A DNA stretch of 64,000 nt from a virus, in IMG/VR virus record IMGVR_UViG_3300012006_000002, positions 38,767 through 102,766 of that record. One strand, written 5' to 3'. A program made the translations under genes and the position numbers. The notes beneath the pieces were generated by a model. The model was not told the origin of the DNA, did not search any database, and saw only the letters and a list, made by a program, of their open reading frames with translations. Below, in pieces: positions 41,345 through 59,963 of this stretch (position 1 is the stretch's first letter; every line of letters starts with the position of its first letter).

Positions 41345-42148
41345 TTATACGGATACAGGTGCTGATATTGATGGATGACTTTGCAATTCATAAAGAACAA
41401 AATCAGAGGCAGAAAGATTTTCGACTTCCTGAAGAGAAGAGAATGACGGCATTACCAGAGTCGGACGATTGAAAGGATCGCGGGATAACTGTTCACTGAC
41501 TTGTTCAACGTGATTGTCATATATATGGGCATCTCCAAGGGAAAATATCAATGAATGCGGAATTCTGTCTGTAACTTGAGCAAGTATGGAAAGAAGAAGT
41601 CCATACGATGCTATGTTAAAAGGAACCCCAAGAAACATATCTCCAGATCTCTGGGTAACTTTCATTGAAACATGATTATATCCATGACAATATAATTGAA
41701 ACATGACATGGCAGGGAGGGAGTGCCATCGAAGGAATATCGGAAGGATTCCATGCATTCACGACAAGTCTGCGGCTATTTGGATTCGTGCGTATTTCATC
41801 AACAATGTTTTGAAGTTGATCAATTGATCCGGAAGGAGATGGCCAATTTCGCCATTGATGTCCATAAATTGGACCTAGCGATCCGTCGTCTTTTTCCCAC
41901 TCATTCCAGATAGTTACGCGGCGTTCTTTTAGCCAATTATTGTTTGTTTCTCCACGAATAAAAAACAACAATTCCCATACAATGGATTTCCATGCCAGCC
42001 GCTTGGTGGTTACCAAGGGAAATCCATCATTAAAATGGAAACGCATTTCTCTGGGCGCAAAAACACTTCGCGTACCCGTCCCTGTGCGATCCATCCTTCG
42101 AACGCCATGCCTCAGCACTTCGTCTAAAACTTCAAGATATTCCTTCAT
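41345..42148 (-). CDS. thyA: Thymidylate synthase, ThyA type (267 aa)
   Basis: Methylates dUMP to dTMP using methylene-tetrahydrofolate. Family blocks in order: DRTGTGTRSVFAPREMRFHFNDGFPLVTTKR (~19-49), IVWELLFFIRGETNNNWL (~55-72), GPIYGHQWRNW (~91-101), the catalytic Cys in MALPPCHVMFQLY (~140), QRSGDMFLGVPFNIASYGLLL (~163-183) and GDAHIYDNHVEQV (~203-215). The length is normal. ATG 42148 has GAGGAAAG upstream; a TTG three codons earlier is less likely. DHFR lies in the same minus-strand region, making a complete dTMP-folate cycle. Confidence 0.95.
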   Translation of the reverse strand: MKEYLEVLDEVLRHGVRRMDRTGTGTRSVFAPREMRFHFNDGFPLVTTKRLAWKSIVWELLFFIRGETNNNWLKERRVTIWNEWEKDDGSLGPIYGHQWRNWPSPSGSIDQLQNIVDEIRTNPNSRRLVVNAWNPSDIPSMALPPCHVMFQLYCHGYNHVSMKVTQRSGDMFLGVPFNIASYGLLLSILAQVTDRIPHSLIFSLGDAHIYDNHVEQVSEQLSRDPFNRPTLVMPSFSSLQEVENLSASDFVLYELQSHPSISAPVSV

Positions 42149-42174
42149 GATGCGCAATTCTTTCCTCGTGGGTA

Positions 42175-42201: not shown

Positions 42202-42313
42202 AGGGGTGGCGTCATGGATCATCAGCAGCAAATCAGTTTTTTTTGAAAGCCTTTATTTTTGGCGACATTTGTATTATAGTATACACGTGATATAATATTT
42301 GTCGGAGAATAAA

Positions 42314-43462
42314 ATGTCAGTATCGTTAAGAGAACATTTGCTTAGAAAATCCAGACAAGAGTTGAGGGACGCGAATCATTCTTTGGTTTGGTATTCCGCA
42401 ATGCGAAAAGCTGATCTGAACGCACAGGCAAGCGCTGGCGGAAACCCGAGGGCACAAAGTGACTATTGGCAACGATATCACGGAGCGACGCTCGACCAAC
42501 ACTTGAATGATCCGTCCGGGCTTCCTCCATCTGCTCGCGATCATATCGAAAGTCAGCGCGAGTTCTGGCAGGGACGCGCTGGCGCTCCCAAGCCAAAGCG
42601 TACTGCTGCGCCAAAACCTTGGCCAAATGGCGAGAGACGCATTCCCGGAACCGGCGCTCCGGAAGAGCGCGACCCGCGGTCGCTCGGAACCATGAGGAGA
42701 TTACGACGCATTGCAGATAGATATGTTGCAAGCATAGGACTTCCGAAGATCAATCATGATCATCCTCCGATTGCAAAAGTTGATCCGGCATTTCATACTG
42801 AAATGGCTCATGCATTTGAACACATGAAAAATGAACCAAATCATCCTGCGGTAAGAGCATCGTATGATGCACTCGCCAAAGAAACAATAGCGCAATTTGA
42901 AGCGTTACGTCGGGCTGGAGTGAAATTCAAGCCGATTCCCGAGGGTCATGGCGATCCATATGAAGGAAATGCACAAAAGATGCTGCATGACTTGCATCAC
43001 AACAAGACGCTGCATTATTTCCAGACCGCACATGGATATGGCGATGAGGGAGCGAATGTTGATCCGGAGAATAAGCCCCTGACTGCAATCGCCGTAGGAT
43101 CTGATGGAAAGAACTTGCATATAGATGGACATAGTGGTCCGCTTATGGTAAATGATATATTCAGAGTTGTTCACGATGTGATGGGGCATGGGCTTGCCGG
43201 TGGTTCAGGATATAAAGGTTATTCGTTTACTCCTCATGGAGAGGAAAGCGCATGGAGACATCATCTCTTGATGTACACACCGGCAGCACGAATGGCGATG
43301 ACTCAGGAGTTAAGAGGACAAAATTCATGGGTTAACTATGGCCCTCATGGGAAAAAGAATCGAACATCCCCTCCGGATACCACATATGCTGATCAGAAAG
43401 TTGGCTTATGGCCGGAAAAATATCAGGAACTCTATCACAATGAGGAAAAACAAGATGGCTGA
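42314..43462 (+). CDS. Conserved phage protein with HDxxGH…E…H domain (382 aa)
   Basis: The C-terminal ~130 residues carry a pattern recurrent in phage proteins: VVHDVMGHGLAGGSGYK, GEESAWRHHLLMYTPAARMAMTQELRGQNSWVNYGPHG and YADQKVGLWP. The invariant H-D-x2-G-H, E and H-H residues suggest a metal site, maybe a hydrolase; I know no assigned function. The N-terminal ~100 residues are basic and helical. ATG 42314 with GGAG upstream is preferred to TTG 42299. It overlaps the next gene by 8 nt. Confidence 0.7.
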   Translation: MSVSLREHLLRKSRQELRDANHSLVWYSAMRKADLNAQASAGGNPRAQSDYWQRYHGATLDQHLNDPSGLPPSARDHIESQREFWQGRAGAPKPKRTAAPKPWPNGERRIPGTGAPEERDPRSLGTMRRLRRIADRYVASIGLPKINHDHPPIAKVDPAFHTEMAHAFEHMKNEPNHPAVRASYDALAKETIAQFEALRRAGVKFKPIPEGHGDPYEGNAQKMLHDLHHNKTLHYFQTAHGYGDEGANVDPENKPLTAIAVGSDGKNLHIDGHSGPLMVNDIFRVVHDVMGHGLAGGSGYKGYSFTPHGEESAWRHHLLMYTPAARMAMTQELRGQNSWVNYGPHGKKNRTSPPDTTYADQKVGLWPEKYQELYHNEEKQDG

Positions 43463-43821: not shown

Positions 43822-46800
43822 ATGACTATCGTATTTCGCAAAACATCGTCAGGAGGAGGTCGTAGCCTTGGCGTGCCCATCGGGCCAGACGGTACTGGAA
43901 CGACAACAAGACGCGAGATAAAAGACAAGATTTTGCGATTTAATCCTTGGCTTGACACTGCCAAAAGAGAAGAAGTTGCTGATCGTCCCGAATCCCAATG
44001 GGGAACGAAGACAAGAAAATGGGTGAAAAAAGAGCTGAGGGACAATCGCTGGACGCGCGCTCCCTTGCGTGCAAAGACTCCGGGCACGGGAACGACAACA
44101 AGGCGAGAGAGAGCGGCCTTGGGTCCAATGGCAACAGCAACACCTCCTGCGCATATGAGAGGAATAGATGGCTTTACAGCGATCCCTCGGTACACAGGAG
44201 GGGGCACAAGGAGGCCTCGCGACAAGGATCCAGATAGCGATGGCTTCACGAGAAATGTAGGCGGGACCGGACAAACTGACGAAGTAGCACGCGCGGCCCA
44301 CGGATGGGGCCACCCCAGCGACTTGTCTGAATTGGCTGGACCAATAGTATCGCCCGTTCGCGGTCCGGAACCTCGTGCGGACGGCAGGCGTCACGCCGAG
44401 GAGTCCCTGCGATTGCCTCATGGCCATGAATTTCAGGATATTGATGAATATCCACCGAAAGGATTTCCTGCGCATTTAAAGGCGCTGACTCCTGATGGCG
44501 GCGGCAGGCGCGTCGGCGATACACCGAGCGGAATAACATTTTCATACGATTATCATTTATCCCATAGCGACGACGATCCCGATCATATGGATGCCGTCGA
44601 ATCAATGCCTCCGGGGATACGGGCTGATGCATCCGGAAAGAAATTCATTCAAAAGATATGTCTTCCAAATGAAAGCACCGCACGTGGAGAAAATGGGATA
44701 TCAAAAGTTGAAGAGTCTCGAAGAAGCACTGTTGGGGAGACTCTTGCCGACCGGATTTATCGTATCTTTGGCGTTCCTGTTCCGCGTTCGCAAATCTATA
44801 GTTTGAAAACAGGATTGCCCGTTCCTCATGATTACCAGTGGGCACCTAACGAATCGGCAACAAGAATATCTGAACATCTTGGAGATGCTTCAAACACGAT
44901 TGCCGGTGATGATGAGGCGCGTAACGGCGGCGTGATCCGGGGAAGAAACCTTGGCTTGGGTCCAATTGGCCGAAATCGTGGACGCTCCAGTTCTGTCGCC
45001 CGTATGTCCGCTCGCGCTTTGCGGGGAAATTCTTCAGGCACTGACGCTAGTACGGATCGCCCGCATGCCGGATTTAACAGAAACAAGAAGCGTTACGCGG
45101 TTGTTCAAGCACTACTTGGAGGCGGTGATGATCATCACCGCAACAGCATGACTGACGGAATAGCAAAGGATATTGTCTGGAAGGTTGACAATGGGTCTGC
45201 ATTGAAACATACTGCATTTGGTTCAGAAAAAGACGAAGAGGAATGGGGAGTTGTTCACCCAAAAACAATTCTTATTCCTGAAATTATAGATCTTCTGCTG
45301 AATAAAACCATTACCTACAGGGAAGCCTATCGGCAAATGGAACAAGTTGCAAAAATATGGAATCGTCAAAAAGATGCAATTGCGCATCTTTACAAATCTG
45401 ATGAAGATCCTGAGCAGTTTCATATTTTTGCCAGTCGGGCCAACAGCATTGCACGGGCAGTTGATCTTATAAAGAGTCCAAGCGAATTACGCAGGGTGTT
45501 TGAGGCACATAAACAAAGACCATATGATGATCCTGCCCGCGTAGGACCAAAAGGCGAAGTGATTCGGAACAGAAGATTTCCGCGAAAGAAGCGATCAGCA
45601 GGATCTGAATCAGGATTCATGGCGCGGTCAATGTTAATGCTAGCCGTTACACCTTTGAAAATCCTGAGGAAAGCGCGTCCGGCTGTGCAGGCAAATCCTC
45701 CGCCGGACACAAAAGATCTTCCCGAAACAGAACTCAATACTCGGGGAGAAAAAATGTATGGTCCATTGCCACCGTGGCCAAAGAGTGATCCGCATACCAT
45801 AGGTGCCACGACACAAGCTGCTGGCATGTATCCATTTGAGGCAAGGCGACGAGCGGCGCTGGAGCAGGGTAATCCCTCTGCCAGAAGAGATTTCAGGCGG
45901 TTGCCGAGAGCCGTGCGAAGAAGAATGCTTGAGATGCACAACCGTGCGGGGGGGGAAGTTCCTGCCGATCTTCGCGACTTGTATCTCGGAGATGAGTATC
46001 GCCCCGGCCGCACAAAAGTCCAATCAAATCCCGGAACATCGGCCAAGGACAGGACTGTACTTCGAGGATCTCCTCGATGGAATACCGCCCGGATTCTTCC
46101 TGTTACATCAACGGTATTCGGTCCCGGACAGAGAATGAGGGGCAATCGTTTCCATGCCGAAGAAGCATTGAAACTTCCGGATGGTCACGAGCATCAGGAC
46201 ATCGGGGAAACCCCTCCTCACGGATTTCCTGATCACCTCAGGGAGCTTCATACACGAGGTGGAGGAAGAAGACTGCCCATTAGTTTAAGTGGTATCAATT
46301 TTGATAGGAGCAGGCATGAAAGCGCATCAAGATATGATGCAAATGCCAAGAAATACATGGCTACCTTCAAGAGATGGAGGCCGGGTATTCGGGAGACTGC
46401 TGACGGACGAAAGTTCATTCAGAAAATCTGTCTTCCTGCGTCGTCGTCGCATTCTGCGCACATGGCAGGAATGAGTGCTGCCGACAAATCTCGGGAAAAC
46501 ACTGTTCACGAAGCAATTGGAGATCGTTTGTTGCGAGTATTTGGAATTCCGGTTCCGAGAACACAGTTATACAGTCTTGCAACCGGAAAACCCGTTCCTC
46601 ATGGTTATCAATGGAAACCCGACGAGATGGCCACCAGAATATCTGAACATCTTGGACCAGAATCAAAGACAATGGCCGAACATGGCGTTTCTTGGGGTCC
46701 GGACGCTATAGCAGCCACGAATTGGCGAGGAAACAAGAAAAGATACTCCATGGTTGCGGCGTTGTTTGATTCCGATGGTGATGATCATGAGGGAAACAGC

Positions 46801-47256
46801 ATGACCGATGGTGTGCATTTTGATATTCCTTGGAAAGTTGATAATGGAGCAGCGCTGAGTCATGATGCATGGGGAAGAAGGAAGAGACATTGGGTCCGAC
46901 ATGAACCAAAGAGCATATTGCTTCCTCAAATTTATTATGCACTAACATCAGGAAGTATTGACTTTCATCACGCATTTGATCAAATGAAACAAATTGCTGA
47001 AATCTGGGCCAAACAGAAAAATACAATTAAAAAAATATTTGCCGATGAAAAAGATCCAGAGCAGTATCAGATTTTCAAGAGTCGCGCTCAAAGCGTTGCC
47101 CGTGCAGTAAATGTTCTTGGAAACGCACGAAATTTGAGAAGATTGATTGAGCGGCATCAAAGAATAATTCCTCAAGCCAACGCAGGAAAAACAAGCGCAA
47201 AGAGAAAAGTGCGTCGCGCAGGACTTGATTCCAATGCCGATATTGTCAATCCATAA
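43822..47256 (+). CDS. Double kinase-fold (HipA/PI3-4-kinase-like) protein (1144 aa)
   Basis: Two tandem units. Unit 1: a leader with PVRGPEPRADGRRHAEESLRLP (~175-197); an N-lobe Lys in KKFIQKICLP (~273-282); a helix ending ADRIYRIFGVPVPRS; catalytic-loop-like GDDHHRNSMTDG (~434-445); and metal-site-like WKVDNGSAL (~453-461). Unit 2 repeats these: KFIQKICLP (~863), GDDHEGNSMTDG (~986) and WKVDNGAAL (~1007). The K / D-x-H-x2-N / D-N-G order is that of HipA and PI3/4-kinase-like folds. Unit 1 ends FMARSMLML, the C-terminal tag of the two following paralogues, so the gene looks like a fusion of two. The basic N-terminus repeats GTGTTTRRE. Substrate and activity are unknown. Confidence 0.65.
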   Translation: MTIVFRKTSSGGGRSLGVPIGPDGTGTTTRREIKDKILRFNPWLDTAKREEVADRPESQWGTKTRKWVKKELRDNRWTRAPLRAKTPGTGTTTRRERAALGPMATATPPAHMRGIDGFTAIPRYTGGGTRRPRDKDPDSDGFTRNVGGTGQTDEVARAAHGWGHPSDLSELAGPIVSPVRGPEPRADGRRHAEESLRLPHGHEFQDIDEYPPKGFPAHLKALTPDGGGRRVGDTPSGITFSYDYHLSHSDDDPDHMDAVESMPPGIRADASGKKFIQKICLPNESTARGENGISKVEESRRSTVGETLADRIYRIFGVPVPRSQIYSLKTGLPVPHDYQWAPNESATRISEHLGDASNTIAGDDEARNGGVIRGRNLGLGPIGRNRGRSSSVARMSARALRGNSSGTDASTDRPHAGFNRNKKRYAVVQALLGGGDDHHRNSMTDGIAKDIVWKVDNGSALKHTAFGSEKDEEEWGVVHPKTILIPEIIDLLLNKTITYREAYRQMEQVAKIWNRQKDAIAHLYKSDEDPEQFHIFASRANSIARAVDLIKSPSELRRVFEAHKQRPYDDPARVGPKGEVIRNRRFPRKKRSAGSESGFMARSMLMLAVTPLKILRKARPAVQANPPPDTKDLPETELNTRGEKMYGPLPPWPKSDPHTIGATTQAAGMYPFEARRRAALEQGNPSARRDFRRLPRAVRRRMLEMHNRAGGEVPADLRDLYLGDEYRPGRTKVQSNPGTSAKDRTVLRGSPRWNTARILPVTSTVFGPGQRMRGNRFHAEEALKLPDGHEHQDIGETPPHGFPDHLRELHTRGGGRRLPISLSGINFDRSRHESASRYDANAKKYMATFKRWRPGIRETADGRKFIQKICLPASSSHSAHMAGMSAADKSRENTVHEAIGDRLLRVFGIPVPRTQLYSLATGKPVPHGYQWKPDEMATRISEHLGPESKTMAEHGVSWGPDAIAATNWRGNKKRYSMVAALFDSDGDDHEGNSMTDGVHFDIPWKVDNGAALSHDAWGRRKRHWVRHEPKSILLPQIYYALTSGSIDFHHAFDQMKQIAEIWAKQKNTIKKIFADEKDPEQYQIFKSRAQSVARAVNVLGNARNLRRLIERHQRIIPQANAGKTSAKRKVRRAGLDSNADIVNP

Positions 47257-47272
47257 AATAAGGAATACATAA

Positions 47273-48781
47273 ATGCCAAAAAAAACGACTTCCATGTCGC
47301 CGGACAAAGCAGCTATACATCAAGCGGTGAGAGCGCAGTTGGATCAAGCACGAAAAGTGGCCCTTCCACGGGAAGAGACGCTTACTCCAAGAAGATTGAG
47401 GGCAGCGTTGCGTGGCCCTAATGCGTCGACAGACAAAAGTACCCCGTCTTCAATGTCTGTGCAAACACCTTCGTGGTGGCAGTCGAGTCCAAGCCAGACA
47501 GCATCCACCACGCCGAGTCCAACGAGACCATCGCGGGGGGCACGTGTAGCGGGAAGGCGGGGAGGATCTGATCCCGACTCGCAATTTGCGCAGGGCAACC
47601 GATGGGCGGTTCCGGGAAAGCCACCGAGAGCTGGTGCGCTAACTTCTCCTGTTCGCGGGCCAGAACCGCGCGCGGACGGCAAACGTCACGCCGAGGAATC
47701 CCTGCGATTGCCTGAAGGTCATGATTTTCAGGATATTGATGAATACCCCCCCAAAGGGTTTCCGTCTCATTTGAAGGAACTGACTCCTGATGGCGGCGGC
47801 GAGCGGCTTCCCATAGAGCCGGGGGGAGTAACGTTCAGCGAGCGTTTTCACGAAACCAACAGCGGAGACGATCCTGAACACATGGCTAATTTTCATGCCA
47901 TGAAGCCGGGTATCAGAAAAACTGCTGCGGGAAAATTGTTTGTGCAAAAGATAGGCCTTCCATCTTCGTCAAGAAGGGAAAGCCCAGTTGATGCGTCCAG
48001 AAAATCCACGAATGGTGAAGTCATTGCCGACCGTATTTTCCGGATTCTGGGGGTTCCAGCTCCACGGTCGCAAGTGTATAGCATGAAGACCGGATTACCT
48101 GTTCCTCATGATTACCAGTGGGCACCCGGAGAAGCATCAACGCGAATATCAGAGCATGTTGGCAAAGATTCCGGAACAATAGGTGATTTAGCATATAGAC
48201 ATGGTGATCATATTAGAGAAGATTGGAAAAGCAACGAAAAAAGATACGAGGTTGCAAAAGCATTGCTTGCCCATGGGGATAATCATGAATATAATACCAT
48301 GCTTGACGGGAAGCATATGGATGTTCCTTGGAAAGTGGATAATGGCTCTGCATTGAAATATGATGCGTTTGGAGGAACCAAGCACGAGAGTGTATGGGGC
48401 AAAGTGCCAGCCAGTGATGTCATATTTCCTCAACTCCTTGAATCAGTTATAAATAAAAAAATAACGCCAAGAGAGGCATACCGGCAAATGGAAGGTATCG
48501 CCAAGATATGGCGTCGTCACCGGGGAGCCATTGAGAAGATCTACAAAAACGAAGAAGATCCCGAGCAGTTCAAGATCTTTGCCAGTCGCGCCGATAGCAT
48601 TGCAAGAGCTGTTGACATGTTCAAGGGTCCGAGAGAGTTTGCCCGAGCGCTGAACCACAATTTAGAACAAGGATTCGGCCCGTTACAGGACCATGCACCA
48701 AAGCGCAAGCCCAAGGGATCAAAGTTCACCGTGGGATCGGAGTTCATGGCCCGTTCATTCAGGTGGGGCATGAACGTCTAG
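47273..48781 (+). CDS. Single kinase-fold paralogue (502 aa)
   Basis: One unit of the same family: PVRGPEPRADGKRHAEESLRLPEGHDFQDIDEYPPKGFP (~124-162), an N-lobe Lys in KLFVQKIGLP (~222), ADRIFRILGVPAPRSQVYS (~247-265), GDNHEYNTMLDG (~334) and PWKVDNGSALK (~352). The first ~110 residues are Ser/Thr/Pro/Arg-rich and disordered. It ends GSEFMARSFRWGMNV. AAGGAA lies before the ATG, and the gene is 16 nt after the double-unit gene. It could modify host or phage targets (AMP or phosphate transfer) after injection; inference only. Confidence 0.65.
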   Translation: MPKKTTSMSPDKAAIHQAVRAQLDQARKVALPREETLTPRRLRAALRGPNASTDKSTPSSMSVQTPSWWQSSPSQTASTTPSPTRPSRGARVAGRRGGSDPDSQFAQGNRWAVPGKPPRAGALTSPVRGPEPRADGKRHAEESLRLPEGHDFQDIDEYPPKGFPSHLKELTPDGGGERLPIEPGGVTFSERFHETNSGDDPEHMANFHAMKPGIRKTAAGKLFVQKIGLPSSSRRESPVDASRKSTNGEVIADRIFRILGVPAPRSQVYSMKTGLPVPHDYQWAPGEASTRISEHVGKDSGTIGDLAYRHGDHIREDWKSNEKRYEVAKALLAHGDNHEYNTMLDGKHMDVPWKVDNGSALKYDAFGGTKHESVWGKVPASDVIFPQLLESVINKKITPREAYRQMEGIAKIWRRHRGAIEKIYKNEEDPEQFKIFASRADSIARAVDMFKGPREFARALNHNLEQGFGPLQDHAPKRKPKGSKFTVGSEFMARSFRWGMNV

Positions 48782-48809
48782 CATTAATACCACGACAGGA
48801 GATATATCA

Positions 48810-51098
48810 ATGCCAAAGAACACATCATCCGATCCGGATTATAATGGAGGTGGTCCGGGCTTGGGTGGGATGACTCCTCCAAGTCACTGGTCCGGGCATT
48901 CTCCGCCTTCAGGGGGACAGACATCGCCGGAACAAGCGGCGGCTGGTCATATTGCCGCAGCGTCGCATCCATCTATCAGTGGCGGAGTGCCGCCCCTGAA
49001 CTCAAGGACTGAGCGATTAGGACGTGTCAACGATGCTCTTGTGGCACGGAACGCGGCGTGGGCCAAACGTGGTGCGGGAGACTCACCTGAGACTCGCTCA
49101 AAAACGCGAGATGATCTTGCGTCACTACCTGACACCTTCTACGCTCCGGAATCGCAGTGGGGGAATGCCACAAGAAAGGAGCTGAAAGAAATAGTCAGGG
49201 TTAACCGTGCGGAGAATCTTGGCAGGCGTTGGGGAACCTTGACGGGGAGCTCGGCACGACGAAGGGGATTCAGGCGGGTGGATGATCTTGAGGCCCGTTA
49301 CGGAAGAGCAGGCCAGAGAGATTGGGGCGCGAGGACAAGAGCCATGGCCCAAGAAATGCTCGATCATGAAAGAGGTATGCCGTCAGCGAGACAGGCCGCG
49401 GTGCGAGCAAAGATAAAGCGGGAAAACAAAATCGTAGCCGCCTTGCAGCAGAGAGATTATGCAGTGGGCAAACGTCGTGCGGGAGATTCGCCTACCCCCG
49501 GCACCAAGACGCGAGATGATCTTGCAGCGCTTGTACGTCAGGGCGACTTGCGACGCGACGCGCCCCCTGACGCGATAAGGGCAGCAAAACGTAATGCGAG
49601 AGTTCTTCGCGCCAAGAAAATTGGCGCTGCTGCCAGAGCGCGTCGCCGTGCTGCGGGAAAACCAGCGGATGCGATGGATCTCAGTCGAAACAGGCGGGTA
49701 CGGCATGTAGATGCTCTTGAGGCGGAGCATGCAAGAGGGACTACTTGGGGTTCGGAAACAAGGCGCATGGCGAGGCAAAAAGTCAGTGACGAGAGCCGTG
49801 CGGATAGATTGTGGCAGATAGCCGCGGCACGCAGGCAAGGGATAACGACCCCCGCGCAGAGGGCACCTGTAGCGAGAGGGCGTCGAGGCGGTTCTGATCC
49901 CGACTCGCAATTTGGCAATGATCGGCGCAATGGCGGTCGTCCGGGAAGGGCATCGGCCCTAACCTCACCTGTTCGCGGGCCAGAACCTCGCGCGGACGGC
50001 AGGCGTCACACCGAGGAGTCCCTGCGGCTACCTGCTGGTCATGAATTTCAGGATATTGACGAAATCCCGCCCAAGGGATTTCCGGCGCATTTGGACGAGG
50101 TAACTCCCAAGGGCGGCGGCGAGCGTCTGCCCATAGACCTCAGTGGAGTCACATTCAAGCAGTACCATCACGAGGGCCGCAGCGGAGACGATCCTGAACA
50201 CATGGCTAATTTTCATGCCATGACTCCGGGGGTCAGGAAGACCGCTGCAGGAAAGTTATTTGTACAAAAGATAGCTCTTCCCGGCAAACGTGGATCTGAA
50301 GCGGTGGATAGTTCCAGAAAGTCTACAAATCAGGAAATGATTGCTGACCGGATTTTCCGGATTCTGGGAGTTCCAGCTCCACGGTCGCAAGTGTATAGCC
50401 TGAAGACAGGATTGCCCGTTCCGCATGATTATAAGTGGTCACCGGGAGAAGCATCCACCCGCCTAGCCGAACATCTTGGCAAGGATTCCACAACGGTGGC
50501 TAGCGCGGATCGGAGACATCAGAGCGCATGGGAAGGGCATGAACGACGATACGCTGTGGCAAAAGCATTGCTCGCTCACGGTGACGATCATCTGAACAAT
50601 ACCATGTTTGATGGAAAGCACATGGACATTCCGTGGAAAGTGGATAATGGCTATGCATTGAAATATAATGCATTCGGAGGCGAAAAAGGTTCAGATATAT
50701 GGGGGGAAGTTTCTCCTCGATCTGTGTTGTTTCCCCAGCTCTATCAAATGATTGGAGAAGGAATCGTAACTCCAAGAGAGGCATACCGGCAAATGGAAGG
50801 TATCGCCAAGATATGGCGTCGTCATGGCGGAGCCATTAGGGAACTGTATAAAAATGACGACGATCCAAAACAAGCCAAGATCTTCGCCAGTCGTGCGGAA
50901 AGCATTGTAAGAGCTGTTGACATGTTCAAGGGTCCGAAAGAGTTTGCTCGGGCGATGAGAACACATTTCAGGGCGTATGATCGGGGTGACCGCGCAACTA
51001 CGAGCGATTTGATTCCAAAGCGCAAGCCCAAGGGATCAAAGTTCAGCACGGGATCGGAGTTCATGGCCCGTTCCTTCAGTTGGGGCATGAACGTCTAG
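48810..51098 (+). CDS. Kinase-fold paralogue with repeat-rich N-terminus (762 aa)
   Basis: The C-terminal ~400 residues repeat the unit: PVRGPEPRADGRRHTEESLRLP (~389), KLFVQKIALP (~481), GDDHLNNTMFDG (~590), PWKVDNGYALK (~607), and the end GSEFMARSFSWGMNV. The N-terminal ~380 residues are Arg/Ala-rich with several short W-G-x2-T-R repeats (QWGNATRKELKE, DWGARTRAMAQE, TWGSETRRMARQ), also seen once in the 1144-aa protein (QWGTKTRKWVKK). They may bind DNA or scaffold proteins. ACAGGAGA precedes the ATG. Confidence 0.65.
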   Translation: MPKNTSSDPDYNGGGPGLGGMTPPSHWSGHSPPSGGQTSPEQAAAGHIAAASHPSISGGVPPLNSRTERLGRVNDALVARNAAWAKRGAGDSPETRSKTRDDLASLPDTFYAPESQWGNATRKELKEIVRVNRAENLGRRWGTLTGSSARRRGFRRVDDLEARYGRAGQRDWGARTRAMAQEMLDHERGMPSARQAAVRAKIKRENKIVAALQQRDYAVGKRRAGDSPTPGTKTRDDLAALVRQGDLRRDAPPDAIRAAKRNARVLRAKKIGAAARARRRAAGKPADAMDLSRNRRVRHVDALEAEHARGTTWGSETRRMARQKVSDESRADRLWQIAAARRQGITTPAQRAPVARGRRGGSDPDSQFGNDRRNGGRPGRASALTSPVRGPEPRADGRRHTEESLRLPAGHEFQDIDEIPPKGFPAHLDEVTPKGGGERLPIDLSGVTFKQYHHEGRSGDDPEHMANFHAMTPGVRKTAAGKLFVQKIALPGKRGSEAVDSSRKSTNQEMIADRIFRILGVPAPRSQVYSLKTGLPVPHDYKWSPGEASTRLAEHLGKDSTTVASADRRHQSAWEGHERRYAVAKALLAHGDDHLNNTMFDGKHMDIPWKVDNGYALKYNAFGGEKGSDIWGEVSPRSVLFPQLYQMIGEGIVTPREAYRQMEGIAKIWRRHGGAIRELYKNDDDPKQAKIFASRAESIVRAVDMFKGPKEFARAMRTHFRAYDRGDRATTSDLIPKRKPKGSKFSTGSEFMARSFSWGMNV

Positions 51099-52025: not shown

Positions 52026-55000
52026 ATGAACAATATCGAACATACCCGACTCGTTGCAATGGAGATGATGAATCCGCTGTTCAAGATTCTTGGTGAAGCA
52101 TCGCGCAAGAACGGAATGGCGTACTATGCGCGGCGGAACAAGAATCTGACGAAGGTGTTTGCGTCAATCAGGAAATTTCCTACTGGAAAGTTTGTGCCTG
52201 CCAGTGGAGTTTATGAGGGGGAACATGAAGGGGTCTTTGGCAACGACCGGAGTTTGTACTTACATGTCCGTCCAAGTCCTCAGCGTATAACCCATGTTGA
52301 TGGCGTGAACACGAGACTTCATCTAGACGATGAGGCAGACCGTCCAGTTCATCCATACATCGAATATATGCAGGTCAAGCCGGGAGCAGCCAATCCCGGC
52401 CCAGAGCATGCCCAGCAAGTATATGAAGCGCTGCATCGTCAGGGATATACCGGCGATACCATGAAGTTCCATGCGCCTACGGATGAAGATGGTCGGCGCG
52501 ACAAGAACGGGCTTAACAGGCGTCAGAGGTTATACCGTCCCTTTGTCCAAGGATGGAAGGACTTCATCCGGTCGAAGGGCAACAAGCAATACCCACCAGA
52601 GAAGTATGAGAACCTTATTAATATACATTTTGAGCGATCATTCGGGGGTCCGCTGTTCAAGATCCTTGGGGCACAAGCGCGCGATCAGGGAATGGACCGT
52701 CATCCACATGTGGCCGATGCGTTTGACTCTTCGGAAAAATATCCTACTGGCCACTTTGCCCCTTTTGGCGGTCATAGTGAGTGGGATGATAGTGCCAACC
52801 ATTGGGATGGACATGAGGGAATCTTCGGCAAGGACCGGGATCTTTATCTTCATGTCAAGCCTGCTCCGCAGCATGCCACTCATGTTGATGGAGAGAACAC
52901 AATGCTTGATCTGGATGACGAGGAAAACCGCCCAATTCATCCGTACATCCAGTACCTGCAGGTCAAGCCGGGAGCAGCCAATCCCGGCCCCGAGCATGCC
53001 CAGCAAGTATATGAGGCGCTCCATCGGCAGGGATATACCGGCGATACCATGGATTTCTTTGCACCTTCGGATTCGGATGGTCGGCGCGACAAGAACGGGC
53101 TTAACAGGCGTCAGAGGTTATACCGTCCCTTTGTCCAAGGCTGGAAGGACTTCATCCGCGCAAAGGGGTACAAGCAATACCCGATGGCAAAATCGTTGAC
53201 CAGACGGTTTTGGGAAAGGAAACCACAGGTTGGTGCTGCGCCACCTCCGGAGCCTGCGCAGGACAGGCCGAGTCTTGCCAGCCGCATGCTTGGAAAGGTC
53301 AAGGTCACGAGACGTTCTGGCTTGGAGGGAGCATCGGCAATTGCGTCAAATCCCAAGGCGGCGGGAAAGATAGCGCTTGACATGGCTGCTCCCGGAGCAT
53401 CCGCCATCGCCAGTGGTGTGCCCGCTCTTCCCAAGGTCGCGGGAGGGACCGATCTTTCCTCGCTGGTTCATCGCGTCGGTTCGAATCCGTCTGCGGAAAC
53501 ATGGGTCTCGTCAGGATTAGGAATAGTGCGTGGCGCTACAACCGGGTTGCTGGGAGTGCTAGTTCCCGGCGGAAGCAAGTCAATAGCAAGTTCTTCGGTA
53601 ACGGCAGGTTCGGGGGTCATGGACGGAATCAAGAAACTGGGAAGCGATCCTGATTTTGCTAGCGGGGCATCCGAATGGTGGCCAAGGAAGAAGGGTGCCC
53701 CGCATGCTGTTCTTCAGCATGCAATACGATTGGCTGCGGCTGGAAAGCAGATAACCAGAAGAGGGTTGTCTGATGCATTGGTTAGAGAAGAAATGACGGC
53801 ACCAATTGTCAGATCTCCTTCCGGAACATTTCATGACATACCTGACCTCATTGGTCCAAAAGTTTCCAATAGTAGCGGAATGTCCGTGTATGTTCTTCCC
53901 GCAGAACATCAAACCAGACATCTTGGCCCAATAGCCCACTATGGAAGCGACGAGAAATTCGGATCTGTCATACAGTTGAGTGGTCATGATGCTGAAGCAG
54001 AAGATTATAAAAAAATGTCAGAAATCATGCGTCCGATACTGGCAGCAGACAAGGCAAACCCCTATGTGGGAGGCATCACCGATCTCACGGGGAATATGGA
54101 TCACAAGAGAGGAAGGCAGATTGCGGGTACAGCGCAGCCTTGGGAAGAGGCAGAGCCGATTTCCTTTGATGGTCCGGAACACGCTTTTGAAGAATTCGAC
54201 AGAAAGCATAATGAAAACGGGGTTGGAAAGTCAATTGTCAAAAAAGGGGAAGCAGAGAAAGAAAGGCGTGCAAAGAAGAGAGAAAAAGAAGAGCAAGAAA
54301 AGCGCGCAAAAAAGCCGAGATATCGTGATGACGATATGGCATCGCGGATGGCCGCTCAAGAGCGCATGCGTACCGCACAGGACAGGATCAGGCCAGCCAA
54401 TCGCTCACGCCTTGAGCGATCATTGTCGTCCATGGAAAAAAGCGCCGCATGGCAACGCAAGGAAGGCAAGAACCCCAAGGGCGGACTCAACGCCAAGGGG
54501 CGGGCATCAGCCAAGCGCGAGGGCCACAATCTCAAGGCTCCGGTGAAATCGGGCGACAATCCTCGCCGCGCATCGTTTCTTGCCAGAATGGGCGGAAGTC
54601 CCGGCCCCGAATATGATGAGCATGGGAAGCCAACCAGATTGTTGCTGGCCCTTCGTGTGTGGGGAGCATCGAGCAAGGCGGATGCGAAGCGAAAGGCAGC
54701 GGCCATGAGCGAGCGGCTCAAGAAAAAGAAACTTGCAAAAGGCCGGGGCGAAGATGCGCGGCAAGACCATTTATTTTCCGGCGCTAAAGGATTTAGTGAA
54801 CGCGATTATCCAACGGGGCAAATGACGAAAACTTCGCAGCTAGGTGTATATGGTATGTCGCATATAGGTGTATTTGGAGAAAAGAGACATATTCTCGTAG
54901 AATCCCACAAAGCATACCCCGATAGCACTCACATTGAATGGGTACATATAGAACCCGGTACAAAAGTTGAACCACATCATATTACGGAGATTTTTGGAGC

Positions 55001-55835
55001 ATTGCATGACGCGGGGTACACGAAGCCGATGAGTTGGAGTGCGCTAGAAGACAATGATGAAAGATTTTCTGATCGGCAATCTTCCCGCAGGGATCGTCTT
55101 TTCCGTCCGCTGGCAGCTCAATGGGACAAATTTGTTGCGGCGAAGCAAGCCAAGATGAGCAAGGCAGAGCTAGACGCAAAAAAGCCAAACCATAATACCT
55201 CCGGCCCCCGTTCCCCCCGCTGGCAGCCCGCAGTTGGCCCAACGCTCACGCCACGCCAGATTGCCATTCAACAGCGAAGCGCCCAAAAATTGGCGGAACT
55301 TGCCGCCCTTCCGGCCGGATCTCCCCAAGCGAGAGAAGCGACTGTGCCCAAGCGATCACGGACACCGTTGATGCCAAGACGCTCGCAAGGGCTTCTCGCA
55401 TCATCCGCTGATGGCCATGTCTCTGTCGCGGAAGCCGCAAGAATACTCGGCATACCGCACTCGGCAGTGACGAAACATATCGAACGAGGTACGTTCCCCG
55501 CAAGATATGAAGCATCCAAGCGCACCATAGATACGAGTCATCCCCACTTCATCGCAGTCCGCGATGGCCTCCGGCAAGGCAAGACCATGAAGACCATTCT
55601 TTATGATCTTGAGGAGAAGCCAGTAACCGAGGAGGAAAAGAAGGACTCCTATGGCGAAATGTACGGCTATCCGCAAGGGAAACGCCGCTACCGCTCCTCA
55701 CGCACACGGACCGGCACGTCCAGACAAGCACGCCTCGGCCAGTACCAGAGAATCTCCCCGGTGACTGGCAAACCCAGCAAGAGTACGAGTCTGGGTCGCC
55801 CTCCCCTCGCTGATCCCTACGCGCTGTTTGATTGA
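52026..55835 (+). CDS. Giant repeat protein with DUF6321-like and HTH segments (1269 aa)
   Basis: Three copies of a ~130-170-aa unit lie near residues 15-188, 207-385 and 921-1042. Copies 1 and 2 share PLFKILG…, FGxDRxLYLHV(R/K)P, AANPGPEHAQQVYEALHRQGYTGDTM and RRQRLYRPFVQGWKDFIR; copy 3 is divergent (YPTGQM, RRDRLFRPLAAQWDKFV). A charged coil (~735-800) follows. Residues ~815-888 match the phage DUF6321 pattern (NPKGGLNAKGRASAKREGHNLKAPV…RRASFLARMGG). A MerR/Xis-type helix-turn-helix (SVAEAARILGIPHSAVTKHIERG, ~1134-1156) and a basic tail with MYGYPQGKRRYR end the protein. A mix of structural and DNA-binding parts suggests a virion or injected protein. Confidence 0.6.
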   Translation: MNNIEHTRLVAMEMMNPLFKILGEASRKNGMAYYARRNKNLTKVFASIRKFPTGKFVPASGVYEGEHEGVFGNDRSLYLHVRPSPQRITHVDGVNTRLHLDDEADRPVHPYIEYMQVKPGAANPGPEHAQQVYEALHRQGYTGDTMKFHAPTDEDGRRDKNGLNRRQRLYRPFVQGWKDFIRSKGNKQYPPEKYENLINIHFERSFGGPLFKILGAQARDQGMDRHPHVADAFDSSEKYPTGHFAPFGGHSEWDDSANHWDGHEGIFGKDRDLYLHVKPAPQHATHVDGENTMLDLDDEENRPIHPYIQYLQVKPGAANPGPEHAQQVYEALHRQGYTGDTMDFFAPSDSDGRRDKNGLNRRQRLYRPFVQGWKDFIRAKGYKQYPMAKSLTRRFWERKPQVGAAPPPEPAQDRPSLASRMLGKVKVTRRSGLEGASAIASNPKAAGKIALDMAAPGASAIASGVPALPKVAGGTDLSSLVHRVGSNPSAETWVSSGLGIVRGATTGLLGVLVPGGSKSIASSSVTAGSGVMDGIKKLGSDPDFASGASEWWPRKKGAPHAVLQHAIRLAAAGKQITRRGLSDALVREEMTAPIVRSPSGTFHDIPDLIGPKVSNSSGMSVYVLPAEHQTRHLGPIAHYGSDEKFGSVIQLSGHDAEAEDYKKMSEIMRPILAADKANPYVGGITDLTGNMDHKRGRQIAGTAQPWEEAEPISFDGPEHAFEEFDRKHNENGVGKSIVKKGEAEKERRAKKREKEEQEKRAKKPRYRDDDMASRMAAQERMRTAQDRIRPANRSRLERSLSSMEKSAAWQRKEGKNPKGGLNAKGRASAKREGHNLKAPVKSGDNPRRASFLARMGGSPGPEYDEHGKPTRLLLALRVWGASSKADAKRKAAAMSERLKKKKLAKGRGEDARQDHLFSGAKGFSERDYPTGQMTKTSQLGVYGMSHIGVFGEKRHILVESHKAYPDSTHIEWVHIEPGTKVEPHHITEIFGALHDAGYTKPMSWSALEDNDERFSDRQSSRRDRLFRPLAAQWDKFVAAKQAKMSKAELDAKKPNHNTSGPRSPRWQPAVGPTLTPRQIAIQQRSAQKLAELAALPAGSPQAREATVPKRSRTPLMPRRSQGLLASSADGHVSVAEAARILGIPHSAVTKHIERGTFPARYEASKRTIDTSHPHFIAVRDGLRQGKTMKTILYDLEEKPVTEEEKKDSYGEMYGYPQGKRRYRSSRTRTGTSRQARLGQYQRISPVTGKPSKSTSLGRPPLADPYALFD

Positions 55836-55944: not shown

Positions 55945-56073
55945 TGGGAAACGGGAGCCTAATCGCCACTTTCGTGGCTTCCCCCTCCCCTCCCCCCCAG
56001 TGGCCGAATTAATTAATTTCTCACTCCCACCCACCCCCCACCCAGCCGGGTGAGTGGGCACCCATAGGCCCAT

Positions 56074-56110
56074 GGCCTCTTGAGTGGCCGGTCAGGCCAC
56101 TCAAGAGGCC
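56074..56110. terminator. 16-bp perfect hairpin at the boundary
   Basis: GGCCTCTTGAGTGGCC pairs fully with 56095-56110 around the loop GGTCA. There is no T-run, so it is either a bidirectional or factor-assisted terminator for the giant upstream operon, or a structural site. Confidence 0.55.
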
Positions 56111-56238
56111 TGAGACGGGCCGGGGCCGCGTCCCTTGATGTTGACATATTGCACATATAGTGCCCTTACCCGAACTGCACCTGTGCCTCCGTGAGACCCC
56201 CTCTGGGATACACCCCCCAAACCGCCACACCACCCACA

Positions 56239-56439
56239 CCGGGGCCGCGCCCCTCTATCCACCCCCGACCGGCACACCGGGGCCGCGTCTCTGGAAGGGT
56301 GGTGGGCCTATACCATTCCCTGCGGGCGGCGATGCCGTTCCGGTCTGTACCATTCTCTAATGACAACGATGCCGTTTGTTTGTGTTAGTCTATAGCAGAT
56401 CGGTCGCGGGGGTAGGATCCGCGATCACAGGAGCTCCCG
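56239..56439 (+). promoter_or_regulatory. Array module M0 (promoter of HNH gene 1)
   Basis: CCGGGGCCGCG boxes at 56239 and 56277 (38 bp apart); two successive TACCAT-N14-GATGCCGTT units (56308-56336 and 56348-56376), the second followed after 9 nt by TAGTCT (56386-56391). Leader hairpin GGTCGCGG (56402-56409) / CCGCGATC (56419-56426), then AGGAG. The -35 region (ACAACG) is not consensus. Confidence 0.75.
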
Positions 56440-56841
56440 ATGGCACGCACGCAACGCGATGGCACTAGTCCCCTTGGGCGTTGGATCCGCCCGGAGAAGC
56501 GTTACGCGATCTACGCGCGTGACGGATTCAAGTGTGCATATTGCACAAAGGATCTGCAGGTCGTGAAGCGCGAGCTGGATCGCCAGCTCGATCACCTTGA
56601 CGGGCGCGCGATCCGGTTCACGGCCGGTGGTCAGGCCGTCCGGAATAATCACCAGTCGAATCTGGTGACGGCGTGCGCGGGATGCAACGCCGCAAAGGCG
56701 GACATCGCGTTCGCAGTGTTTGCGAAGCGGTTCGCCGGTTCCCAGTCGCGCATCGCACGACTGGTGAAGCTCCCGTTGGACATTCCGGCGGCGAGGATCG
56801 CACTCGGGCTTCCGCCCGTGCGAGGGTACGTCCGGGACTAG
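56440..56841 (+). CDS. Small HNH endonuclease, array gene 1 (133 aa)
   Basis: Classic compact HNH nuclease: C-A-Y-C (~28-31), DRQLDHLDGRAIRF (~47-60) with the catalytic His, then NNHQSNLVTACAGCNAAKAD (~70-89) with Asn and the second Cys pair. Basic ends. A second array gene (58767-59168) is its close paralogue of the same length. Such proteins may nick host or rival DNA, act as homing nucleases or assist packaging. Own promoter, leader hairpin and terminator. Confidence 0.85.
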   Translation: MARTQRDGTSPLGRWIRPEKRYAIYARDGFKCAYCTKDLQVVKRELDRQLDHLDGRAIRFTAGGQAVRNNHQSNLVTACAGCNAAKADIAFAVFAKRFAGSQSRIARLVKLPLDIPAARIALGLPPVRGYVRD

Positions 56842-56860
56842 TCCCGCACTCCGCCCGAGG

Positions 56861-56890
56861 AACCCCGGCTTCGGCCGGGGTTTTGTTTTG
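56861..56890 (+). terminator. Terminator after array gene 1
   Basis: AACCCCGGC-TTCG-GCCGGGGTT followed by TTGTTTTG; a UUCG-type tetraloop. Confidence 0.9.
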
Positions 56891-56916
56891 CCCGCAATCC
56901 GTCGCGGGTGTGGGAA

Positions 56917-57113
56917 ATGGTACAGCCCCATCACCATTGCACCGGGGCCGCGTCCCTCCACCCACCCCCGACCGACGCGCCGGGGCCGCGTATGCTGTGG
57001 GGTGGGGGGGCATGACCCTGTACCATTCTCTAAGACCGACGATGCCGTTTAGACCTGTTACACTAGGGGCAGAGGTTGCGCCACCACACGCGCGACCCGG
57101 TCGGGAGGCCACC
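56917..57113 (+). promoter_or_regulatory. Array module A
   Basis: Operator O1 ATGGT-N11-ACCAT (56917-56937); CCGGGGCCGCGT boxes at 56942 and 56980; CTGTACCAT half-site; GATGCCGTT (57041-57049), 9 nt, TACACT (57059-57064). Leader hairpin GGTTGCGC (57074-57081) / GCGCGACC (57090-57097); GGGAGG before ATG. Confidence 0.8.
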
Positions 57114-57308
57114 ATGCCCACTGCCACTGCCACCCTCGTGGAGCTCACTGCCCACGAGGCGTTTGCCTACTTCACCGAGCAGGTGAAGCAGGCGCACGCC
57201 GCCCGCGCACGCGCGCGGCACACCTACGCCTTGCGGAAGGCGGAGAACCGAATCCGCCATTGGGAGGCGGAGAAGCGACGCGCCCTCGCGGCCATCCGCG
57301 AGGGCTAG
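57114..57308 (+). CDS. Array gene 2, small basic helical protein (64 aa)
   Basis: Ala/Arg/His-rich, probably one helical hairpin (VKQAHAARARARHTYALRKAENRIRHWEAEKRRALAAI). The start is fixed by GGGAGGCCACC before ATG, the shared leader of this array; a longer open frame to 56673 runs over the upstream HNH gene and terminator. No family recognised. Basic helices could bind nucleic acid. Confidence 0.7.
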   Translation: MPTATATLVELTAHEAFAYFTEQVKQAHAARARARHTYALRKAENRIRHWEAEKRRALAAIREG

Positions 57309-57315
57309 TCCCAAG

Positions 57316-57341
57316 CCCCGGCTTCGGCCGGGGTTTTCTTT
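57316..57341 (+). terminator. Terminator after array gene 2
   Basis: CCCCGGC-TTCG-GCCGGGG followed by TTTTCTTTT. Confidence 0.9.
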
Positions 57342-57369
57342 TGCCCGCAATCTGTCGCGGGTGTGGGAA

Positions 57370-57566
57370 ATGGTACAGCCCCATCATCATTACACCGGGG
57401 CCGCGTGCCCCCACCCACCCGCGCCGAATGCGCCGGGGCCGCGTATGCTGTGGGGTGGGGGGGCATGACCCTGTACCATTCTCTAAGACCGACGATGCCG
57501 TTCAGACCTGTTACACTAGGGGCAGAGGTTGCGCCACCACACGCGCGACCCGGTCGGGAGGCCACC
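57370..57566 (+). promoter_or_regulatory. Array module B
   Basis: O1 left half ATGGT (57370) with a changed right half (ATCAT); boxes at 57395 and 57433; TACCAT (57474); GATGCCGTT (57494-57502), 9 nt, TACACT (57512-57517). From the TGCTGTGGGG after the second box to the start it is almost identical to module A, including the GGTTGCGC leader, so it is a recent duplication or conversion. Confidence 0.8.
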
Positions 57567-57791
57567 ATGTCCACCACCCAAACCGCTGCGCCGCTCGCGC
57601 CCGTCGTTCAGGACGCGCTTGAGCGCGTTCTGGCCATCTACACGCGCGTCGAGCCGATGCTCGCCGCGCACGACGCCGTTGAGGCAGGCACGCGCATCCG
57701 CGACCTCGTCTACCTCGTGGAGACGATGCGCATCTCGGAGCGTAAGGCACTCGCGGAGATCGCGAAGGTGCGTGCGTTTATCCTCGGATAG
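57567..57791 (+). CDS. Array gene 3, small helical protein (74 aa)
   Basis: Predicted three-helix, hydrophobic-core protein (VQDALERVLAIYTRVEPMLAAHDAVEAGTRIRDLVYLVETM) with no Cys. Start chosen at ATG after the shared GGGAGGCCACC leader; the frame is open upstream into the module but without a site. No family recognised. Confidence 0.7.
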   Translation: MSTTQTAAPLAPVVQDALERVLAIYTRVEPMLAAHDAVEAGTRIRDLVYLVETMRISERKALAEIAKVRAFILG

Positions 57792-57813
57792 CCGCACGCA
57801 CTCCGCTCGCGAG

Positions 57814-57840
57814 ACCCCGGCTTCGGCCGGGGTTTCTTTT
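57814..57840 (+). terminator. Terminator after array gene 3
   Basis: ACCCCGGC-TTCG-GCCGGGGT followed by TTCTTTTT. Confidence 0.9.
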
Positions 57841-57868
57841 TGCCCGCAATCTGTCGCGGGTGTGGGAA

Positions 57869-58069
57869 ATGGTACAGCCCCATCACCATTGCACCGGGGC
57901 CGCGTGCCCCCACCCACCCGCGCCGAATGCGCCGGGGCCGCGTATGCTGTAGGGTGGGGGGGCATGACCCTGTACCATTCTCTAAGACCGACGATGCCGT
58001 TCAGACACCTGTTACACTAGTGGCAGTGGTCGGGACACCCAACACCCCGACCCGGCCGGGAGGGCCACC
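57869..58069 (+). promoter_or_regulatory. Array module C (2-nt longer spacer)
   Basis: O1 (57869-57889); boxes at 57894 and 57932; GATGCCGTT (57993-58001) followed by 11 nt instead of 9 before TACACT (58013-58018). Leader hairpin GGTCGGG/CCCGACC, then GGGAGG. Confidence 0.8.
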
Positions 58070-58465
58070 ATGTCCACCATCACCACTCGCACCCCGCTGA
58101 AGGTCGCGCAGGAGTTTGTCCTGCCGTTCGTCGGCTTCCGCAAGCTGGAGGACGCAGACCTCGAAGGACGCTTGGACGTTCAGGAGGGTCTGCGCCAGTA
58201 CGTGATCGCCTACGATGGGCGCTTCGCGTTCATGCTGTCCTTGTACCGCGGGGCGGTCAAGGGCACCCTGTCCATCGGTCAACTGCGCGGGGCGGCCAAC
58301 GTCCTTCGCGCAGAGCTCGCGCCGAAGAAGGGCAAGGGCAAGGGCAAGGGCGCGCGCGCCGAAGATCCGGAGACGCGGGCGTTCCGCCAGATCGTCGAGT
58401 CCATCGAGGGCGACGGGTCTTACGCGCCCACGTGGGAGGACGCGCAGGACTACTTCGACAGGTAG
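58070..58465 (+). CDS. Array gene 4, hypothetical protein (131 aa)
   Basis: A folded N-terminal ~80 residues are followed by a KKGKGKGKGKGAR lysine-glycine linker (~83-95) and an acidic C-terminal segment (SIEGDGSYAPTWEDAQDYFD). No family recognised. The tripartite basic linker/acidic end recalls small host-binding phage proteins, but nothing specific can be claimed. Confidence 0.7.
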   Translation: MSTITTRTPLKVAQEFVLPFVGFRKLEDADLEGRLDVQEGLRQYVIAYDGRFAFMLSLYRGAVKGTLSIGQLRGAANVLRAELAPKKGKGKGKGARAEDPETRAFRQIVESIEGDGSYAPTWEDAQDYFDR

Positions 58466-58486
58466 TCCCGCGCACTCCGCCCGCGG

Positions 58487-58515
58487 AACCCCGGCTTCGG
58501 CCGGGGTTTTCTTTT
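58487..58515 (+). terminator. Terminator after array gene 4
   Basis: AACCCCGGC-TTCG-GCCGGGGTT then TTCTTTT. Confidence 0.9.
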
Positions 58516-58542
58516 GCCCGCAATCCGTCGCGGGTGAGGCAA

Positions 58543-58766
58543 ATGGTACAGCCCCATCACCATTGCACCGGGGCCGCGTCCCTCCACCCACCCCCGACCG
58601 ACGCGCCGGGGCCGCGTCCATGTATGGTGCAATGCCTATACCATTTCCACTTTTCTCCATTGGTGTGAAGCCTGTACCATTCTCTCATTGTCAACGGTGC
58701 CGTTTGCTTGTGTTAGTATATAGCAGGTCAGTCGCGGGTGTAGGAACTGCGACTGCGGAGACACTC
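58543..58766 (+). promoter_or_regulatory. Array module D (three operators)
   Basis: O1 58543-58563; boxes at 58568 and 58606; O2 58624-58644, 81 bp from O1; an extra operator TTGGT-N11-ACCAT (58660-58680); GGTGCCGTT (58696-58704), 9 nt, TAGTAT (58714-58719). Leader hairpin CAGTCGC / GCGACTG, then GCGGAG. Confidence 0.8.
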
Positions 58767-59168: not shown

Positions 59169-59174
59169 CAAGGG

Positions 59175-59206
59175 AACCGCCCCGGTCAAACCGGGGCGGT
59201 TTTTTC
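59175..59206 (+). terminator. Terminator after array gene 5
   Basis: AACCGCCCCGGT-CAA-ACCGGGGCGGTT with a T-run; sequence unrelated to the TTCG terminators. Confidence 0.9.
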
Positions 59207-59235
59207 GATCCGCAATCCGTCGCGGGTGTGGGGTA

Positions 59236-59931: not shown

Positions 59932-59935
59932 GGTC

Positions 59936-59963
59936 AAGCCCCCGATTAGGGGGCTTTTCTTTT
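59936..59963 (+). terminator. Terminator after array gene 6
   Basis: AAGCCCCC-GATTA-GGGGGCTT then TTCTTTT. Confidence 0.9.

What the first reader, a model, noticed from the sequence alone, without database searches (positions are those of the whole stretch)
43822..51098. Four kinase-fold domains in three adjacent phage genes
Each unit has, in order, an N-lobe Lys (F-[IV]-Q-K-[IV]-x-L-P), an A-D-R-I-[FY]-R-I-[FL]-G-V-P helix, G-D-[DN]-H-x2-N-[ST]-M-x-D-G and W-K-V-D-N-G-x-A-L. The order K / D-x-H-x2-N / D-N-G is the hallmark of HipA and PI3/4-kinase-like folds. Tandem expansion of a kinase family in a phage, next to genes with virion-like features, suggests injected effectors that modify host proteins or nucleotides, or anti-defence factors. 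All catalytic-type residues are conserved in all four copies, arguing for activity.
Basis: partly seen in the sequence, partly recalled or inferred. Interest (0 to 1): 0.85.

Follow-up and report, generated by a model that had tools for sequence, protein, structure and literature searches.

The report
Four tandem HipA/PI4K-like phage kinases
A freshwater-type phage carries three adjacent genes that together encode four copies of an enzyme domain folded like a protein/lipid kinase; remote relatives of this domain sit inside proteins that other phages build into their particles, so these are probably enzymes injected into the bacterium to modify its proteins.

Summary
Three adjacent ORFs (43822-47256, 47273-48781, 48810-51098) hold four paralogous domains (46-70% identical, dN/dS about 0.2 where measurable) that all keep Lys, Glu, D-x-H-x2-N and D-N-G. 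The domain matches nothing in Pfam, PHROGs, NCBIfam or PDB by sequence. Three kin contigs carry divergent homologues (24-30% identical). With two further phage kinase-like domains aligned, the only eight invariant columns are K, P, D, H, N, D, G, P. Profile comparison links the domain to a phage family found in Gordonia phages GodonK/Phendrix/Forza/Sixama, Yersinia phage fHe-Yen8-01 and a Pseudomonas prophage (P about 6e-7, 225 columns; controls 0.06 or worse). AlphaFold2 on a 9-sequence alignment gives pLDDT 81 and pTM 0.83; all 50 listed PDB matches are kinase-fold enzymes (PRPK, PI4K, Vps34, CtkA, HipA), though TM-scores are low (0.26-0.41). Relatives lie beside portal, MuF or ADP-ribosyltransferase genes, or inside ADP-ribosyltransferase proteins; one is annotated particle-associated. 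So the kinase fold is well supported, catalysis is likely, and the injected-effector role is plausible but untested. Phage HipA-family kinases were already reported; what is new is a divergent, previously undetected subfamily, tandemly expanded.

The parts
43822..47256 (+). gene g1, 1144 aa, two kinase-like units
   Evidence: ORF and internal BLAST; no Pfam/PHROG match above cut-off
44440..45498 (+). kinase-like unit 1 (K codon 44653, E 44737, D 45127, H 45133, N 45142, D of DNG 45187)
46216..47139 (+). kinase-like unit 2 (K 46423, E 46510, D 46780, H 46786, N 46795, D of DNG 46840)
47273..48781 (+). gene g2, 502 aa, one kinase-like unit
47735..48670 (+). kinase-like unit 3, the unit modelled by AlphaFold2 (K 47948, E 48017, D 48278, H 48284, N 48293, D of DNG 48338)
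48810..51098 (+). gene g3, 762 aa, one kinase-like unit with a repetitive basic N-terminal half
50055..50990 (+). kinase-like unit 4 (K 50268, E 50334, D 50583, H 50589, N 50598, D of DNG 50643)
42299..43462 (+). upstream gene; its C-terminal domain recurs in a cyanophage 'large polyvalent protein' and in very large proteins next to lysozyme and tail genes
52026..55835 (+). downstream gene with DUF6321 region; in kin record G002 a homologous DUF6321 region is fused directly to the kinase-like domain

Best explanation
The three genes encode four paralogous kinase domains of the HipA / PI3-PI4-kinase-like (atypical kinase) fold. Inferred mechanism: ATP is held by the N-lobe Lys-Glu pair, the D of D-x-H-x2-N is the catalytic base, and its N together with the D of D-N-G bind Mg2+, as in HipA. 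The proteins are probably made late, packaged in or attached to the virion, and delivered with the DNA, where they phosphorylate (or, less likely, nucleotidylate) host proteins early in infection. Shown here: homology, conserved catalytic set, predicted kinase-like fold. Inferred: activity, packaging, injection, protein substrates.
For: Residues: the eight invariant columns in a 9-sequence alignment down to 17-24% identity are K, P, D, H, N, D, G, P; with 8 members of the distant phage family the invariant set is K, E, D, D, G, G. Homology: the profile finds kin-phage homologues at E 8e-36 and 1e-14; profile-profile with the Gordonia/Yersinia/Pseudomonas phage family gives P 5.9e-7, 92%, 225 columns, while reversed, shuffled and terminase controls give P 0.06 or worse; with HipA P 1.1e-4; the family profile aligns CtkA in register at a weak E of 1.2. 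A motif-only scan GDxHxxNxMxDG of 2.9 million viral contigs returned 5 proteins, all with kinase-type C-lobe motifs by eye; of four scanned, three have weak or above-threshold Pfam kinase matches. Structure: pLDDT 80.8, pTM 0.83, order beta(K72)-alphaC(E95)-beta-beta-alphaE-D182/H184/N187-beta-beta-D202/G204; all 50 listed PDB hits are kinase-fold enzymes; viral hits include portal- and ART-annotated phage proteins and the same GodonK/Sixama proteins found by sequence. Context: relatives directly after portal, near ART and MuF genes, in a prophage after a minor head gene, and in a protein noted as 'phage particle associated'. Selection: dN/dS 0.15-0.26.
Against: No sequence match to any curated kinase family. 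The first AlphaFold run with only the four window units failed (pLDDT 41), so the confident model depends on remote homologues in the alignment. Foldseek TM-scores are low (PDB 0.26-0.41, viral up to 0.50) with large rmsd, so the fold is divergent. The window-only profile against the phage family without the bridging sequence is not significant (P 0.04). In this phage no ART, MuF or portal domain is fused or adjacent. No direct evidence of packaging.
Confidence: 0.62

Rival explanations
1. Same kinase fold and activity, but the enzymes act inside the producing cell late in infection (host takeover or exclusion of competing phages) and are not packaged.
For: Benler et al. 2021 (PMC8008677) proposed this for HipA-family kinases encoded between portal and capsid genes of Gratiaviridae phages. 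No packaging evidence in this phage.
Against: Relatives are fused to ADP-ribosyltransferase/NUDIX domains in proteins next to head genes, one noted as particle associated; the upstream neighbour carries a polyvalent-protein domain.
Confidence: 0.22
2. Catalytically dead kinase-like modules used as structural or DNA/protein-binding parts of the virion.
For: Repetition of units, basic repetitive N-terminal parts, low TM-scores to active kinases.
Against: K, E, D, H, N, D are kept in all four copies and in kin phages while most other positions change; a purely structural module would not need to keep them.
Confidence: 0.1
3. Phosphoinositide or other small-molecule kinase rather than a protein kinase.
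For: PI3K/PI4K are among the best structural hits and the GDxHxxNxM...DNG spacing resembles them.
Against: Most bacteria lack phosphoinositides (established knowledge); HipA and CtkA, bacterial members of the fold, are protein kinases (established knowledge).
Confidence: 0.06

Closest known systems
Unnamed phage kinase-like domain of Gordonia phages GodonK/Phendrix gp66, Forza gp78, Sixama gp73, Yersinia phage fHe-Yen8-01 gp129 and a Pseudomonas juntendi plasmid prophage protein
   Same: Profile-level homology over the whole domain; same K, E, D..N, D-x-G order; D-x-G-G-[AS]-L-x-[FYW]-R-x-x-G-x-x-K matches D-N-G-x-A-L-x-x-x-x-[FW]-G-x-x-K
   Different: Those mostly have N-W-D-x(n)-N catalytic loops and are single copies within 730-2800 aa proteins, with or near ART/NUDIX domains; here the loop is D-x-H-x2-N and there are four tandem copies without those partners
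HipA family kinases (PF07804), including phage HipA-family kinases of Gratiaviridae (Benler et al. 2021, PMC8008677) and H. pylori CtkA
   Same: D-x-H-x2-N motif, alpha-C Glu and following G-V-P segment align (P 1.1e-4); structural hits 3akk and 2wiu; phage late-gene setting in Gratiaviridae
   Different: Below all Pfam thresholds; no HipA N-terminal domain or HipB partner seen; D-N-G in place of the HipA Y-D-[LI] segment
PI3/PI4 kinases (PF00454) and bacterial PI4K-like proteins
   Same: GD-x-H-x2-N-x-M ... [IV]-D-[NH]-G pattern and fold hits 8q6g, 4hne, 9e4v
   Different: Profile comparison with actinobacterial PI4K-like proteins is weak (P 0.0085); no Pfam match
Phage polyvalent proteins and injected enzymes such as T4 Alt (Iyer et al. 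2017, PMC5512222; PMC9503650)
   Same: Relatives have ART, NUDIX and kinase domains in one long head-associated protein; the upstream gene shares a domain with a 'large polyvalent protein'
   Different: The kinase group described by Iyer et al. is a protein-kinase type lacking the C-terminal subdomain, with different motifs; the genes here carry only kinase units

Membership tests
HipA/PI3-PI4-kinase-like (atypical kinase) fold | Predicted kinase-like fold with kinases as best structural matches | tested here: met
   pLDDT 80.8, pTM 0.83; top 50 PDB hits all kinase-fold enzymes, E 1e-4 to 2e-3, but TM 0.26-0.41
HipA/PI3-PI4-kinase-like (atypical kinase) fold | Conserved Lys, alpha-C Glu, catalytic Asp, Asn and metal-binding Asp in order | tested here: met
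HipA/PI3-PI4-kinase-like (atypical kinase) fold | Catalytic residues cluster around ATP | not testable with these tools
HipA (PF07804) | Match to the HipA_C model above its cut-off | tested here: not met
   no match in window proteins; kin homologue P0004 11.7 bits against cut-off 30.5
HipA (PF07804) | HipB-type antitoxin partner | tested here: inconclusive
   no such adjacent gene recognised among neighbours scanned; not searched exhaustively
PI3_PI4_kinase (PF00454) | Match to the Pfam model | tested here: not met
Phage portal-linked kinase-like family (GodonK/Forza/fHe-Yen8-01) | Profile-level homology over the whole domain | tested here: met
   P 5.9e-7, 225 columns; same proteins found by fold search
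Phage portal-linked kinase-like family (GodonK/Forza/fHe-Yen8-01) | Location in or beside ART/MuF/portal genes | tested here: not met
   no PF03496 or PF04233 match in the record or its kin; portal lies 15 kb away
Polyvalent / injected virion protein | Present in the virion and delivered to the cell | not testable with these tools
   needs virion proteomics

The most novel reading that the evidence does not exclude
The phage injects a set of three proteins with four diverged active kinases, each tuned to a different host target: a multi-kinase injected arsenal, for which no precedent was found in the literature searched here.
Probability: 0.3. Interest if true: 0.72.

Novelty: new variant of a known kind. 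Interest (0 to 1): 0.55.

Why it matters
Few phage kinases have been characterised (T7 gp0.7, the 933W kinase; see PMC8008677), and HipA-like ones are only predicted. This shows a divergent subfamily invisible to Pfam, PHROGs and NCBIfam, ties it to a wider phage family that travels with ADP-ribosyltransferases in head-associated proteins, and offers a compact 312-residue domain for a direct activity test.

Tried and rejected
AlphaFold2 on the four window units alone: pLDDT 41, uninterpretable. Direct tblastn in phages and plasmids and peptide-pattern scans of viral and bacterial contigs with window units: nothing. Patterns GDxHxxN-14-DNG and WKVDNG: none, or proteins without a kinase loop. 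Y-x2-KTG-x6-Y[KQ]W: only known kin plus one near-copy, L161; bacterial hits chance. Distant terminases gave no further close kin. Pfam weak hits (T3SS needle, DNA_pol_A_exoN) judged chance. ART or MuF in this phage: none. The polyvalent-protein kinase of Iyer et al. 2017 was rejected as the same group because its described features (His then Asp, lost C-terminal subdomain) differ.

Full report
Observation. The window is bases 38767-102766 of a 102,766-base IMG/VR virus record. ORFs 43822-47256, 47273-48781 and 48810-51098 hold four copies of one domain, two in the first ORF. A whole-record search finds exactly these four. Catalytic-type residues were checked codon by codon. Pairwise amino-acid identity is 46-70%, nucleotide identity 51-73%, and dN/dS is 0.15-0.26 where synonymous sites are not saturated: old duplicates, all kept under purifying selection.

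Known families. No match above cut-off in Pfam, none in PHROGs or, for the 502-aa protein, NCBIfam, no convincing one in PDB sequences, and no tblastn match in phage or plasmid records.

Kin phages. The terminase (24775-26442) finds a narrow clade of IMG/VR contigs with 73-83% identical terminases. A profile of the four units finds one homologue each in two of 14 contigs searched (12 reached by terminase, two by the motif scan): E 8e-36 (L051) and 1e-14 (L052). A third contig has a near-copy of the second (L161). L051 lies near the polymerase III alpha gene; in L052 the domain is fused to the DUF6321 region that in the window is in the separate downstream gene 52026-55835. Copy number and place therefore vary; a 184-kb kin contig has none, though its completeness is unknown.

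Motif test. A scan of viral contigs for GDxHxxNxMxDG alone returned five proteins. All five show kinase-type catalytic motifs by eye. Of the four scanned against Pfam, two have weak sub-threshold PI3_PI4_kinase matches, one matches APH above cut-off, and one (L005) has none. Two (L005, L008) align over the domain although chosen by the C-lobe motif only, and place a Lys in the right column. Because of that choice their D, H and N are not independent evidence; their Lys is.

Distant relatives. The six-sequence profile, run on 398 Pseudomonadota genomes, found one further good match (L274, E 8e-8 per genome), a domain followed by NUDIX. tblastn with it reached Gordonia phages Phendrix, GodonK, Forza and Sixama, Enterobacter phage phiT5282EW, Yersinia phage fHe-Yen8-01, Morganella phage Mecenats66, an actinobacterial phage and two plasmids. 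In Phendrix, Forza and Sixama the gene follows the portal gene; in Forza and Sixama an ADP-ribosyltransferase gene is close by, and Forza also has a MuF-like gene there. In fHe-Yen8-01 it lies in a 2146-aa protein annotated ADP-ribosyltransferase toxin, 'phage particle associated protein'. In the Pseudomonas plasmid prophage it follows a minor head gene and shares a protein with NUDIX and ADPrib_exo_Tox domains. Profile-profile comparison of the window family with this family, the bridging sequence left out, gives P 5.9e-7 over 225 columns; reversed, five shuffled and terminase controls give P 0.06 to 0.9. The four window units alone do not reach it without the bridge (P 0.04), so the link runs through the kin-phage sequences. 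Against six HipA proteins P is 1.1e-4. Across 14 sequences the invariant residues are K, E, D, D, G and one more G.

Structure. AlphaFold2 with four sequences failed. With nine sequences unit 3 gives pLDDT 80.8, pTM 0.83. Lys72 ends a strand, Glu95 is in the long helix after it, D182-H184-N187 follow a long helix, and D202-G204 follow the next strands: the kinase order. In the PDB all 50 listed matches are kinase-fold enzymes, among them PRPK, PI4KIII-beta, PI4KII-alpha, Vps34, PI3K-delta, CtkA, HipA, CotH and the AMP-transferase YdiU/SelO, with E from 1e-4 to 2e-3 and probability 0.96-1.00. TM-scores are 0.26-0.41 with large rmsd, so this is a divergent member. Among viral models the best are a 'phage portal protein' of 1201 aa, the GodonK protein and ADP-ribosyltransferase proteins, TM up to 0.50: the same family reached by sequence. 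Coordinates could not be read, so clustering of the residues in space was not measured.

Context and mechanism. The gene upstream (42299-43462) has a C-terminal domain also found in the 'large polyvalent protein' of Planktothrix phage Pag-Yong1 and in very large proteins beside lysozyme and tail genes of other phages. The downstream DUF6321 region is common in aquatic phages; 'freshwater-type' in this report rests on that and on the kin being environmental contigs, and the host is unknown. No ART or MuF domain was found in this record or its kin, and the portal gene is 15 kb away. Late production, packaging and injection are therefore inferred from relatives. Iyer et al. 2017 (PMC5512222) describe multidomain proteins of phages thought to be injected; Benler et al. 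2021 (PMC8008677) describe HipA-family kinases between portal and capsid genes and favour late intracellular action. Both readings stay open here.

Verdict. Kinase-like fold about 0.93; active phosphotransfer or related transfer about 0.75; virion-delivered about 0.5. A new, divergent and tandemly expanded variant of a known kind of phage enzyme.

Noticed in passing
window 56000-64000: GC rises to 56-66% and 12-13 copies of a roughly 260-nt intergenic element recur every 450-760 nt between small ORFs: a GC-rich hairpin with T-run, then GTCGCGGGTGTGGG, GCCGGGGCCGCGT and GTACCATT..GACGATGCCGTT. No Rfam match. Looks like a cassette array with a repeated terminator/leader element.
   Followed up: partly
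window 43822-44200 and 48810-49930: Basic N-terminal parts of g1 and g3 contain repeated W-G-x2-T-R segments (one in g1, three in g3), absent from other window ORFs.
   Followed up: partly
window 45600-45680, 48735-48778, 51050-51095: A shared tail GSE(SG)FMARS[FM] follows units 1, 3 and 4 and ends g2 and g3; could be a targeting or protease-cleavage tail.
   Followed up: no
L005 5124-7682 and L008 7319-9958: Two other large phages encode 850-880 aa proteins with a PI4K-like kinase domain at the C-terminus after segments that by eye resemble an ADP-ribosyltransferase and a transglycosylase (Pfam only sub-threshold).
   Followed up: partly
window 28995-32432: Bacterial-type DNA polymerase III alpha subunit encoded by the phage, with thymidylate synthase at 41345-42157.
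   Followed up: no
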